Shown here: positions 21,615 through 25,377 of the stretch, piece by piece
Layout of the letters: every line of letters begins with the position of its first letter
Numbering within the stretch: the stretch's first letter is position 1
NCBI GenBank assembly: GCA_021810705.1
Contig: JAJZID010000005.1
Location: 1-35,631 of the forward strand
Origin: Actinomycetes bacterium
GTDB taxonomy: Bacteria; Actinomycetota; Thermoleophilia; Solirubrobacterales; Solirubrobacteraceae
Reading direction: 5' to 3'
DNA length: 35,631 nt
The notes under the pieces: model-generated
What the model was told of the DNA's origin: nothing
The model's input: only the letters and a program-made list of their open reading frames with translations
The model's database searches: none
Translations under genes and position numbers: made by a program

Positions 21615-21670
21615 AGGGCATGAGCATAGAAGAACGCCGGCGGCTAGGCGCCGCGTCATATGCTGACGGC

Positions 21671-22597
21671 GTGTCTGTGCGTCTGTGCGGATCTCTGCTC
21701 GGCGCGGCGGTTGCGCTGGCGCTTCTCCCGGCGGTTGCGCTGGCACGCTGGCGACCACCGCAACACCTCACCTGGTACATGCAGTTCACCGGGCGGATCA
21801 ACTACGGCGAGCCGGTCGACGCCTACGATCTGGACGGCTTCGACACCACGGCCGCGCGGGTGCGCGCTCTGCACGCGGCCGGCAAGCGGGTGATCTGCTA
21901 CATCGACGTGGGCACCTGGGAGAACTGGCGCCCTGATGCGCACGACTTCCCGCGCTCGGTACTGGGGCGCGGTGACGGCTGGCCTGGCGAGCGCTGGCTT
22001 GACATCCGAGCGCTGCGCGTGCTCGAGCCGATCATGACCAGGCGCTTTGAAATGTGCCGGCGCAAGGGCTTTGACGCCGTTGACCCCGACAACATCAACG
22101 GCTTTCGCAACAACACGGGCTTTCCGCTGACGGCCCGTGAGCAGCTGCGCTACGACGAGTGGGTCGCGCGCGAGGTCCACGCGCTCGGCATGGCTGTGTT
22201 TGAGAAAAACGATCTGACCCAGGCAAGGCAGCTGGAGCCCTACTTTGATGGCGTCGTCGACGAGCAGTGCAACCAGTACCACGAGTGCGGCATGTTGCGG
22301 CCCTACCGGCACGCCGGCAAGCCGGTCATGGACATCGAGTACAGCCTGTCAACCAGCCGCTTCTGCGCCGCCGATGACGCGGCCGGGATCATGGGCGCGC
22401 GGCTCAACCTGGCGCTCAACGGCGCGCGTTTTGAGCCGTGCTGGGCGCAGGCACGGGTGGCCCAGGCGAGTGCGGGCGGGCGGCGCCTGCGTGGCGCCGC
22501 CCGCCCCCAGCTCACGGCAGCAGCGCCGGGTTGGCGTTCTGCGCCAGCGCAAGCGCCTGAGCTGGGAACCACTGGCCGGCCGGCGGGTCGGCCATAA
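21671..22597 (+). CDS. Secreted GH114-like (endo alpha-1,4-polygalactosaminidase-type) glycoside hydrolase
   Basis: Signal-like VRLCGSLLGAAVALALLPAVALA; KRVICYIDVGTWENWRPD, WLDIRALRVLEPIM, GFDAVDPDNINGF. GTG start and C-terminal tail uncertain. Confidence 0.78.
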   Translation: MSVRLCGSLLGAAVALALLPAVALARWRPPQHLTWYMQFTGRINYGEPVDAYDLDGFDTTAARVRALHAAGKRVICYIDVGTWENWRPDAHDFPRSVLGRGDGWPGERWLDIRALRVLEPIMTRRFEMCRRKGFDAVDPDNINGFRNNTGFPLTAREQLRYDEWVAREVHALGMAVFEKNDLTQARQLEPYFDGVVDEQCNQYHECGMLRPYRHAGKPVMDIEYSLSTSRFCAADDAAGIMGARLNLALNGARFEPCWAQARVAQASAGGRRLRGAARPQLTAAAPGWRSAPAQAPELGTTGRPAGRP

Positions 22598-24152
22598 CCG
22601 CACCGGTCTGAAGGCTCCAGAGCGGATCAAACGTCGTCCAGTCCGAGCTCGTGCTCGTCGGCCAACCGGCGATCGGCGGGGTGTCGCCACCGCCGGCGCC
22701 GGCAGCCGTGTAGTCCTGCCAGGCGCGCACGCCGCCGGCCGCGTCGCACTGGCCGTCAGACTGGCCCGGCGTCTTGACCCACAGGTAGGCGTCGAGCAGC
22801 GCCGGCGTGCCGGCTGGTAGGTAGCCGTCCAGCGAGCTGAGCACCGTCGAGGTGTCCGTGGTCGGCTGGGTGCCCAGCCCCGTGCCGGGAGGGTTGCACC
22901 AGTTGCCCGACTGCAGCGTGGAGATCACGCTCGCGGGCTGGTTGTAGGGCGCGGCCGCGTAGGTCTGCATGCTGTTTGGCCCCAGGCCGTCACGGCTGGT
23001 GTCGACCACGAAGTGGGTGGTCGGAACCGTGGTGCCAAGCATCGAGGCGTAGCGAGAGTCGATGCCCGCGGTGTTGAGAGAGGCTTCGGTCTGCGACTCG
23101 CTCCACACGCCGAAGGGGCTCATCGCGACTCCGCTCCAGTCGTTGGCCGGTCCGCCGTTCCAGTACTGGTTCGGGCAGCTATTGAACGCACCCTGCGGGT
23201 TGTTGTCGGCCGAGGTCAGGCTTGCCGTGTATCCGAGCGCCGAGCTCTGGGTCTCACCCTGCAGTTGGGTCGCGTACGCGATGCACTCAGAGACCCAGGT
23301 GCCGTAGTAGTCGCTGTTGGTCGCGTACTGGTAGTTGGAGACGTTCAGGAAGAATCCCTGCGCCTGCTGGACGTCGGCGGCGACCAGCACCTCGGCGATG
23401 TTGCCCACCGTCTGCCAGGCGCTGTTGCCGGCGTCGATGTAGAGGCTGATGTTGGGGTCGGATTCGAGCGTCTTGACGCCGTAGGCAACGTCGTCGATGC
23501 GGGTCTGGTTGGTGATGTCAGGGAATGCGCTGTTGTAGGCGCTGCCGCAGTATCCGGGCAGGTTGGCCAGCGCGTCCGGTTCGAGCAGAACCACCGCCTT
23601 GGCGTTGCCGAGCGCCGCCTTGATCGAGTCGATCCAGGACTCATAGGCCGCATCGGACGGTGCACCGCCGGCCGAGTACTGGGAGCAATCGCGGCCGGGG
23701 ATGTTGTAGGCCACAAAGACCGGGACCGCGTGCTGTTGGCTGGCGCGGACCAGTGCCGTGTGAACCTGGCGCATCACGTCCTGGCCGGCCTGCATAGTGC
23801 CGACCGCTCCGCGGGCAGACTGGGCGGCGGTTTCGCCGTCAAGCCAGACGGCTGACGGAACCATCTCCATCTCCGCGAGCAGGCGCGCGTTCTGGGGCTG
23901 GCCGGCGGCAATCAGATGACCGATCTGCTGCAGCGAGCCGGCCGCCGGGGGTGGCACGTAGAAGCGGGTGTTAGGGGCCAGCGTGTGGCCGCCTGTGTCG
24001 GCGTTGTAGGGGCCGCCCAGGTGCGGCGTCCGAGCCGCTGCGGTCCCGGTGGCGACGCCGAGTGCCAGCATCGTTACCGCGGTTGCGCCGAGCGCCGTCC
24101 AGGCGCCGCGCGAGCGTAGCCGGAGCTTCGCTCCGTGCCTGCTTGGGTGCAT
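22512..24152 (-). CDS. Secreted glycoside hydrolase family 6 (endoglucanase/cellobiohydrolase type)
   Basis: Signal peptide; VAYNIPGRDCSQYSAGG, VVLLEPDALAN, LYIDAGNSAW, VDTSRDGLGP, DAYLWVKTPGQSDGQCD. Confidence 0.93.
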   Translation of the reverse strand: MHPSRHGAKLRLRSRGAWTALGATAVTMLALGVATGTAAARTPHLGGPYNADTGGHTLAPNTRFYVPPPAAGSLQQIGHLIAAGQPQNARLLAEMEMVPSAVWLDGETAAQSARGAVGTMQAGQDVMRQVHTALVRASQQHAVPVFVAYNIPGRDCSQYSAGGAPSDAAYESWIDSIKAALGNAKAVVLLEPDALANLPGYCGSAYNSAFPDITNQTRIDDVAYGVKTLESDPNISLYIDAGNSAWQTVGNIAEVLVAADVQQAQGFFLNVSNYQYATNSDYYGTWVSECIAYATQLQGETQSSALGYTASLTSADNNPQGAFNSCPNQYWNGGPANDWSGVAMSPFGVWSESQTEASLNTAGIDSRYASMLGTTVPTTHFVVDTSRDGLGPNSMQTYAAAPYNQPASVISTLQSGNWCNPPGTGLGTQPTTDTSTVLSSLDGYLPAGTPALLDAYLWVKTPGQSDGQCDAAGGVRAWQDYTAAGAGGGDTPPIAGWPTSTSSDWTTFDPLWSLQTGAVMADPPAGQWFPAQALALAQNANPALLP

Positions 24153-24171
24153 GTTCTCTCCTCGAGACTGG

Positions 24172-24200
24172 TTCCGGAACATTCCGGAAGGGTTCCGGAC
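24172..24200. promoter_or_regulatory. Triple TTCCGGAA box array upstream of the GH6 gene, candidate repressor operator
   Basis: TTCCGGAA-CA-TTCCGGAA-GGG-TTCCGGAC at 24172, 24182 and 24193; periodicity 10 and 11 bp. Confidence 0.65.
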
Positions 24201-24203
24201 GCA

Positions 24204-24233
24204 ATCCTACGCACAACGTCTGGCCCCTGTCAA
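24204..24233 (-). promoter_or_regulatory. Predicted GH6 promoter: -35 TTGACA, 18-bp spacer, -10 TAGGAT
   Basis: Minus-strand TTGACA (24233-24228) and TAGGAT (24209-24204), followed by GAGGAG-type SD and ATG at 24152. Confidence 0.7.
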
Positions 24234-24251: not shown

Positions 24252-25310
24252 TCAGTGGCGGGCGTGCGCGGTTGAGCCGCGCTGGACCAGCCTGGTGGCG
24301 AGCTCGACCTGCAGCGGCTCGGACTGCTGGCCCGCCATCAGCCGGAAGAGGAGATCCACCGCCATGCGCCCCAGCTCTCTCAACGGCTGGCGCACGGTGG
24401 TCAGTGGTGGATGTGCAATCTCGGCCTCGACCGTGTCGTCGAAGCCGACGACCGAGAGCTCATCGGGAACGCTGAGACCGAGCTCGCGTGCAACGCGGAT
24501 CGCACCGACCGCCATGCTGTCGTTGAAGGCCAGGATCGCCGTGGGCGGATCGGGCAGCGCGAGCAGCCGCCGGGCAGCAGCGATGCCGCCGGCCAGCAGA
24601 TAGTCACCCTCCTGCTCCAACGCTGGGTCGGGGATCACCCCGGCGCTGACCTGGGCGGAGTGGTAGCCCATCAGGCGCCGCCTGGTCGCGAGGCCGACGG
24701 TCGGTCCTGTGATCGCGCCGATCCGGCGATGGCCGAGGCTCAGCAGGTGCTCGGTCGCCTGATGCGCGCCCGCCGCGTTGGCTGCCGACACGACGGGGAT
24801 GTCCTCGTCGAGCTCGTACAGCGGGTCGACGACGACGAAACGAAAGCCCTGCCGCTTGAGCTCGCGCAACTCGGCAGGCGACTCCTCGGGCAGCACCAGG
24901 ACAGCGCCGTCGGTTTCGGCGCGCACGAGCTCCTCGATCAGCGAGCGTTCGTAGTTGTGCTGATGTCCGGTCGGGCACACCAGGGCGTGCATGTCCTGCT
25001 CGGAGAGCGCCTCGACCGCTCCGGAGAGGATCGTGGCGAAGTACGCCGGCGCCGAGTAGGGCATCGTCACGCCCACGATCCCGGTCCAGTGTGCGTTGTC
25101 GGCCGCCAGCCCGACCTGCCGCGTACGCTGGCGGTTGCCGTAGCCGCTCGAGCGCGCAACCTGCGCCACCAGACGTCTGGTCTCGGGTGAGACGTCGCCG
25201 CGGCCGTTCAGCGCGCGAGATGCCGTTGCCACCGAGACGCCGGCCAGCTCTGCCACCTGGCGGATCGTCACGCGACCGCGACCGCTCGGCTGATAGGAGG
25301 CGTCCACCAC
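24252..25310 (-). CDS. LacI-family transcriptional regulator
   Basis: HTH VTIRQVAELAGVSVATASRALNGRGDVSPETRRLV; periplasmic-binding-like domain LGHRRIGAITGP, AILAFNDSMAVGAIR, LSVVGFDDTVEAE. GTG start at 25310. Confidence 0.94.
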   Translation of the reverse strand: MVDASYQPSGRGRVTIRQVAELAGVSVATASRALNGRGDVSPETRRLVAQVARSSGYGNRQRTRQVGLAADNAHWTGIVGVTMPYSAPAYFATILSGAVEALSEQDMHALVCPTGHQHNYERSLIEELVRAETDGAVLVLPEESPAELRELKRQGFRFVVVDPLYELDEDIPVVSAANAAGAHQATEHLLSLGHRRIGAITGPTVGLATRRRLMGYHSAQVSAGVIPDPALEQEGDYLLAGGIAAARRLLALPDPPTAILAFNDSMAVGAIRVARELGLSVPDELSVVGFDDTVEAEIAHPPLTTVRQPLRELGRMAVDLLFRLMAGQQSEPLQVELATRLVQRGSTAHARH

Positions 25311-25377
25311 GCAACCATTCAACCAGCTGCCCTGATCGGCGACCACTCGCCCCTGGCGACCACCCGCCCCTGGTAGC

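What the first reader, a model, noticed from the sequence alone, without database searches (positions are those of the whole stretch)
24172..24233. Triple phased TTCCGGAA boxes immediately downstream of a consensus GH6 promoter
On the minus strand, TTGACA-N18-TAGGAT is followed directly by three 8-bp boxes (two perfect TTCCGGAA, one TTCCGGAC) at 10- and 11-bp spacing, i.e. on one helical face. The predicted TSS falls in the first box met by polymerase, with the SD and ATG just after. A LacI-family gene lies directly upstream of GH6. CebR-type LacI repressors use a single longer palindrome, so a three-box array with central CG suggests an unusual operator, cooperative binding, or another regulator.
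Basis: partly seen in the sequence, partly recalled or inferred. Interest (0 to 1): 0.62.

Follow-up and report, generated by a model that had tools for sequence, protein, structure and literature searches.

The report
LacI operator array at cellulase promoter
Three tightly packed copies of an 8-base DNA word sit on the start point of a secreted-cellulase gene and are very probably the docking site of the sugar-sensing LacI-type repressor encoded next door, because related bacteria carry the same boxes in front of the genes of related repressors; it is a new variant of an ordinary kind of switch.

Summary
On the minus strand TTGACA-N18-TAGGAT (24233-24204) is followed by GTCCGGAA, TTCCGGAA, TTCCGGAA (24200-24172) at 11- and 10-bp steps, ending 20 bases before the GH6 ATG. 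No shuffle of the window gives such a cluster. Promoter, boxes and ribosome site recur before the only other close GH6 orthologue found (G107), where synonymous sites are only 53-58% identical.
The decisive evidence lies outside the window. Homologues of the neighbouring LacI in another family of the class (52-60% identical) carry the same boxes before their own lacI genes: 23 exact TTCCGGAA in 19 upstream regions against 0.2 in shuffles, and 10 pairs at 10/11 bp against 0.01. Homologues with other recognition helices (SPAT, STAT) have none and carry GAAA..TTTC or GTAA..TTAC instead. So the array is the operator of this LacI clade, not of an unrelated regulator.
The unit is probably not the TTCCGGAA box but GNAA-N2-4-TTNC; boxes are junctions of two overlapping operators (24184-24198, 24174-24187). 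Clade neighbours (Opp- or MalE-type transporters, GH1 beta-glucosidases) suggest a beta-glucoside effector. Central CG and multiple sites are ordinary for LacI regulators. Binding itself is untested.

The parts
24228..24233 (-). -35 hexamer TTGACA of the GH6 promoter
   Evidence: same hexamer and 18-bp spacer in G107 and G069
24204..24209 (-). -10 hexamer TAGGAT; predicted start about 24196-24198
   Evidence: TAGCAT in G107, TAGGCT in G069; start site inferred, not measured
24193..24200 (-). box 1, GTCCGGAA (imperfect); CCGGAA part conserved in G107
24182..24189 (-). box 2, TTCCGGAA (perfect, conserved in G107)
24172..24179 (-). box 3, TTCCGGAA (perfect, conserved in G107)
24184..24198 (-). 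proposed operator A: CCGGAA-CCC-TTCCGG (half-sites 3 bp apart; CG spacer in G107)
   Evidence: register from LacI homologues
24174..24187 (-). proposed operator B: CCGGAA-TG-TTCCGG (half-sites 2 bp apart; TA spacer in G107), overlapping operator A by 4 bp
   Evidence: register from LacI homologues
24158..24163 (-). Shine-Dalgarno GAGGAG, 5 bases before ATG; CTCGAGGAGAGAACATG identical in G107
22512..24152 (-). GH6 gene (secreted cellulase/cellobiohydrolase family), the regulated gene
   Evidence: Pfam Glyco_hydro_6 E 4e-58; PDB hits to GH6 cellulases
24252..25310 (-). LacI-family regulator, recognition helix SVATASRALNG, proposed to bind the array; start codon about 25308-25310 (GTG)
   Evidence: Pfam LacI and Peripla_BP_3; orthologues 84% in G107, 73% in G069

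Best explanation
The boxes are the operator of the LacI-family repressor encoded immediately upstream of GH6. Without inducer, repressor dimers bind the two overlapping palindromes (GGAA-N3-TTCC and GGAA-N2-TTCC, five alternating half-sites in 28 bp) that cover about +1 to +26 of the GH6 transcript start and block initiation or promoter escape. A sugar released from beta-glucans, most likely cellobiose or a related cello-oligosaccharide, releases the repressor and the secreted cellulase is made. Shown: the sequence, its conservation with the lacI-GH6 pair, and the co-occurrence of the same boxes with the same LacI clade elsewhere in the class. Inferred: binding, repression, the register, and the effector.
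For: (1) Position on a good promoter directly after the lacI gene. (2) In G107 LacI is 84% and GH6 79% identical, promoter and boxes are kept (22 of 24 box positions) while fourfold sites are 53% and 58% identical; P about 5e-5 to 3e-4 at those rates, 3e-3 at the GH6 third-position rate. G069 (LacI 73%) has TTGACA-N18-TAGGCT-N5-CCGG at the end of its contig, the point where box 1 begins. (3) LacI homologues of family f7 carry 23 exact TTCCGGAA in 19 upstream regions (shuffles mean 0.23, max 2) and 10 pairs at 10/11 bp (mean 0.01, max 1); two have TTCCGGAA-CG-TTCCGGAA just before the lacI -10. (4) By recognition helix: 14 of 17 f7 rows with I/V at the second helix position have an exact box, 0 of 13 rows with P or T, 0 of 2 with M. 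(5) In 399 class genomes, two perfect boxes 2-4 bp apart occur in 8; of the five non-coding cases two are these GH6 promoters and two precede clade lacI genes. (6) Register: 22 of 23 exact f7 boxes have a further half-site GNAA or TTNC 2-4 bp away (26 sides, 2.8 expected), mostly without a completing outer box; f1 homologues carry 24 GNAA-N2/3-TTNC palindromes against 0.54 in shuffles, at spacers of 2 and 3 bp almost only. (7) Effector: clade members lie by SBP_bac_5/Opp-type or MalE-type transporters and GH1 genes.
Against: No binding or expression data. Only two GH6 promoters with the array exist in the set, so the GH6 target rests on one comparison. The clade counts are not phylogenetically independent; L009 has the I-type helix and no box. 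The window LacI differs from the f7 proteins in helix (SVATASR against SIATVSR) and lacks the usual hinge motif NxxARxL, so its exact register may differ. No box lies before its own gene. The central pair is CG in neither of the two palindromes here, whereas it is CG in the TTCCGGAA reading.
Confidence: 0.8

Rival explanations
1. Same LacI repressor, but the true unit is each TTCCGGAA box (centre C|G), so three dimers or alternating dimers use three boxes.
For: Boxes 2 and 3 are perfect and fully conserved while the linkers change (CCC to CG, TG to TA); a central CG is the rule for LacI regulators; boxes 1 and 3 are 21 bp apart, near the 22-bp peak of cooperative pairs; several f7 sites have a box with only one further half-site.
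Against: Isolated sites in the clade are GNAA-N2-4-TTNC palindromes without an adjoining TTNC-GNAA junction; of 26 flanking half-sites next to f7 boxes only 8 are completed to a full outer box; the first half of box 1 is not conserved.
Confidence: 0.25
2. The boxes bind a different regulator (for example a CebR/CelR orthologue or a global regulator) and the LacI neighbour is incidental.
For: No binding data; no box before the window lacI itself.
Against: The same boxes track this LacI clade across the class. The CebR box TGGGAGCGCTCCCA is absent from the window genome, G107 and G069. Apart from the array, single CGGAA-N2-3-TTCCG matches in the genome lie mostly in coding sequence, so there is no sign of a global regulon.
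Confidence: 0.1
3. The inverted repeats act as RNA hairpins in the 5' leader (attenuation or mRNA stability).
For: CCGGAACCCUUCCGG folds into a 6-bp hairpin at the 5' end; both repeats are kept in G107.
Against: Folding energy is only 1.4 sd below shuffles; no compensatory changes; in the f7 homologues the same boxes lie upstream of the lacI -10 element and so are not in that transcript.
Confidence: 0.05
4. A chance cluster of short palindromes without function.
For: Short palindromes are common; similar arrays occur in coding repeats in other phyla.
Against: 0 of 200 shuffles; conserved in G107; strong enrichment before clade lacI genes.
Confidence: 0.02

Closest known systems
CebR/CelR cello-oligosaccharide repressors of Actinobacteria (box TGGGAGCGCTCCCA; Acidothermus variant TGGGA(A/T)CG(A/T)TCCCA)
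   Same: LacI-family repressor of GH6 and other cellulase genes, linked to transporter and beta-glucosidase genes; the Acidothermus variant contains GGAACGTTCC, the core of operator A in G107 (PMC3377646)
   Different: Box TGGGAGCGCTCCCA absent here; half-site CCGGAA instead of TGGGAGC; overlapping sites 10-11 bp apart instead of separate boxes; the clade has Opp-type transporters in several members; only one target gene seen
Overlapping LacI-family sites (GntR sites before gntKU and 110 operons with sites about 13 bp apart, PMC4052901)
   Same: Two LacI-type palindromes whose contact zones overlap at one promoter
   Different: Distance here about 10-10.5 bp between centres, with a shared TTCCGGAA core, and spacers of 2 and 3 bp in one array
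Cra/FruR operator TGAAACGTTTCA (PMC11157272)
   Same: Half-sites GNAA and TTNC with a 2-bp CG spacer, as in the paralogous SPAT-type sites GAAACGTTTC
   Different: GGAA half-sites, tandem array, secreted cellulase target

Membership tests
LacI-family transcription factor and operator | N-terminal LacI HTH plus periplasmic-binding-like sensor domain | tested here: met
   PF00356 E 5e-14, PF13377 E 4e-39
LacI-family transcription factor and operator | Palindromic site made of conserved inverted repeats near the promoter | tested here: met
   GGAA-N2/3-TTCC palindromes on the start site
LacI-family transcription factor and operator | Central CG pair (usual, not universal) | tested here: inconclusive
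   CG in G107 operator A and in each TTCCGGAA box; not in the two GGAA-N-TTCC palindromes of the window
LacI-family transcription factor and operator | Hinge helix NxxARxL (usual, not universal) | tested here: not met
   Kept in most f7 and STAT homologues, absent in the window LacI, G107, G069 and the SPAT group
LacI-family transcription factor and operator | Direct binding released by a sugar | not testable with these tools
   needs EMSA with ligands
CebR/CelR | Box TGGGAGCGCTCCCA at regulated genes | tested here: not met
   no exact match in window genome, G107 or G069
CebR/CelR | Orthology to Streptomyces CebR or Thermobifida CelR | not tested
   no CebR/CelR sequence was compared; NCBIfam models hit only below cut-off, best CytR 206 of 436 bits
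CebR/CelR | Control of GH6 cellulase genes | tested here: inconclusive
   array on a GH6 promoter in two genomes; regulation not measured

The most novel reading that the evidence does not exclude
A LacI-family clade uses a compound operator of alternating abutting half-sites (GNAA-N2-4-TTCC|GGAA-N2-4-TTNC, centres 10-12 bp apart), closer than known overlapping LacI sites, and tolerates several spacer lengths; in the window lineage this goes with loss of the usual hinge motif. Such packing would need a binding mode other than two independent canonical dimers.
Probability: 0.3. Interest if true: 0.5.

Novelty: new variant of a known kind. Interest (0 to 1): 0.37.

Why it matters
It gives a testable regulator-operator pair for cellulase control in Solirubrobacterales soil bacteria, a group for which the paper searches found no such work, and links the recognition helix of one LacI clade to its half-site (P or T helices with GAAA or GTAA, I or V helices with GGAA). 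The overlapping geometry bears on an open question noted in PMC4052901: how LacI-family dimers use sites whose contact zones overlap.

Tried and rejected
Other sites in the own genome (CGGAA-N2-3-TTCCG): five more, mostly in coding sequence; one (own C136, also in G107 C106) looks like an ECF-type -35 GGAAC before a STAS-domain gene, not a LacI site. Array pattern in 257 Gb: besides G107 the hits are scattered and mostly in unrelated contexts. Operator before the window lacI or the MFS gene: none with GGAA half-sites. NCBIfam naming of LacI: all models below cut-off. RNA hairpin idea: weak. Literature for TTCCGGAA with LacI: only unrelated papers among those listed.

Full report
What is there. 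Read on the minus strand, the gap between the lacI stop and the GH6 start contains TTGACA, 18 bases, TAGGAT, then GTCCGGAA-CCC-TTCCGGAA-TG-TTCCGGAA, then CTCGAGGAGAGAAC and ATG. The promoter scan returns this pair as its only promoter in 1.7 kb. Three boxes within 25 bp did not arise in 200 dinucleotide shuffles of the window. The triple pattern occurs at 25 stretches in 257 Gb.

Genes. The upstream gene is a LacI-family regulator, the downstream gene a GH6 enzyme with an N-terminal signal-like segment. Related records name the group as Solirubrobacterales.

Conservation at the locus. In G107, of the same genus, the pair lacI-GH6 is kept (84% and 79% identity) with TTGACA-N18-TAGCAT and CCGGAA-CG-TTCCGGAA-TA-TTCCGGAAC, and an identical CTCGAGGAGAGAACATG. 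Box positions are 22 of 24 identical; fourfold sites are 53% and 58% identical. The MFS gene upstream of lacI in the window is not there in G107, so it is not part of the conserved unit. In G069 the lacI orthologue (73%) is followed by TTGACA-N18-TAGGCT-N5-CCGG and then the contig ends. In 146 genomes of the family no other close GH6 orthologue was found; one 38% match lies in G166.

Who binds. The window LacI was searched against the family and the class. Homologues in its own family with helix SPATVSR carry GAAA-CG-TTTC and CTGAAA-N3-TTTCAG sites; STATVSR ones carry GTAA-CG-TTAC type sites. Counted together, GNAA-N2/3-TTNC palindromes number 24 in 14 upstream regions against 0.54 in shuffles; over spacers of 0 to 8 bp, 2 and 3 account for all but one. 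In family f7, tested as a second set, there were 13 against 0.86 in 16 regions, though there spacers of 4, 1 and 0 bp also occur, and exact TTCCGGAA boxes numbered 23 against 0.23 with 10 box pairs at 10/11 bp against 0.01 in 19 regions. L088 and L082 have TTCCGGAA-CG-TTCCGGAA next to the -10 of lacI, L074 and L085 a one-mismatch version. By helix: exact boxes in 14 of 17 f7 rows with I/V, none of 13 with P/T, none of 2 with M, and none in L009 (I helix, family f1). The tree shows SPAT, SVATA and SMAT each as one group; relatedness means these counts are not independent trials. A reverse test agrees: of 399 class genomes, 8 have two perfect boxes 2-4 bp apart; three are coding repeats, two are the GH6 promoters, two precede clade lacI genes, one is unexplained.

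Register. In the f7 regions, 22 of 23 boxes have another GNAA or TTNC 2-4 bp away, 26 sides against 2.8 expected, and only 8 of those are completed into a second full box. The simplest reading is a chain of LacI-type palindromes GNAA-N2-4-TTNC that abut or overlap, so that TTCCGGAA is the junction TTCC|GGAA. For the window this gives operator A 24184-24198 and operator B 24174-24187. The box reading is not excluded.

Mechanism. Repressor bound at about +1 to +26 would block the GH6 promoter. Clade members elsewhere stand next to SBP_bac_5/Opp-type (L092, L093) or MalE-type (L095) transporters, with GH1 genes close by in L093, L094 and L095, so a beta-glucoside such as cellobiose is the likely inducer; this is inference. 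In the window lineage the regulator is separate from the transporter genes; the own genome has a second member (SPAT type, C35) beside an Opp transporter. The different half-sites (GAAA against GGAA) would keep the two apart.

Comparison. PMC4052901 shows that central CG, tandem, triple and overlapping sites are all known for LacI regulators. CebR/CelR is the nearest functional parallel but its box is absent. New here are the half-site, the tight packing at 10-12 bp and mixed spacers.

Limits. No binding, start-site or expression data. Assemblies are metagenomic and incomplete (own 70%).

Noticed in passing
G202 contig C63 7924-7952 (L026, L033): Another genome of the genus has GTTCCGGAAC three times at 10 and 11 bp steps, next to TTGCCAGGCAA repeats and a tyrosine recombinase; no close LacI homologue was found in that genome.
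   Followed up: partly
L005/L028 end (G069 contig C188, 12149): The contig ends at ...TAGGCTCTTCACCGG, exactly where box 1 would start in the orthologous promoter; what follows is unknown.
   Followed up: partly
L012-L018 upstream of lacI, e.g. L017: SPAT-type paralogues have even (GAAA-CG-TTTC) and odd (CTGAAA-N3-TTTCAG) palindromes in one intergenic region, with a third abutting site; mixed spacing for one regulator is unusual.
   Followed up: partly
window 25317-25322 and L004, L005, L012-L018: TTGAAT or TTCAAT about 10 bases before the GTG/ATG of lacI genes looks like a -10 of nearly leaderless transcripts.
   Followed up: no
window 21620-22597 (+); L027 9414-10382: A GH114 gene lies convergent to GH6; G107 keeps only a piece matching its C-terminal part at this place.
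   Followed up: no
L066 and L064, position 1501: CGGAACTTTCCG with GCGCGTT downstream before a STAS-domain gene in own and G107 genomes, resembling an ECF sigma promoter.
   Followed up: no
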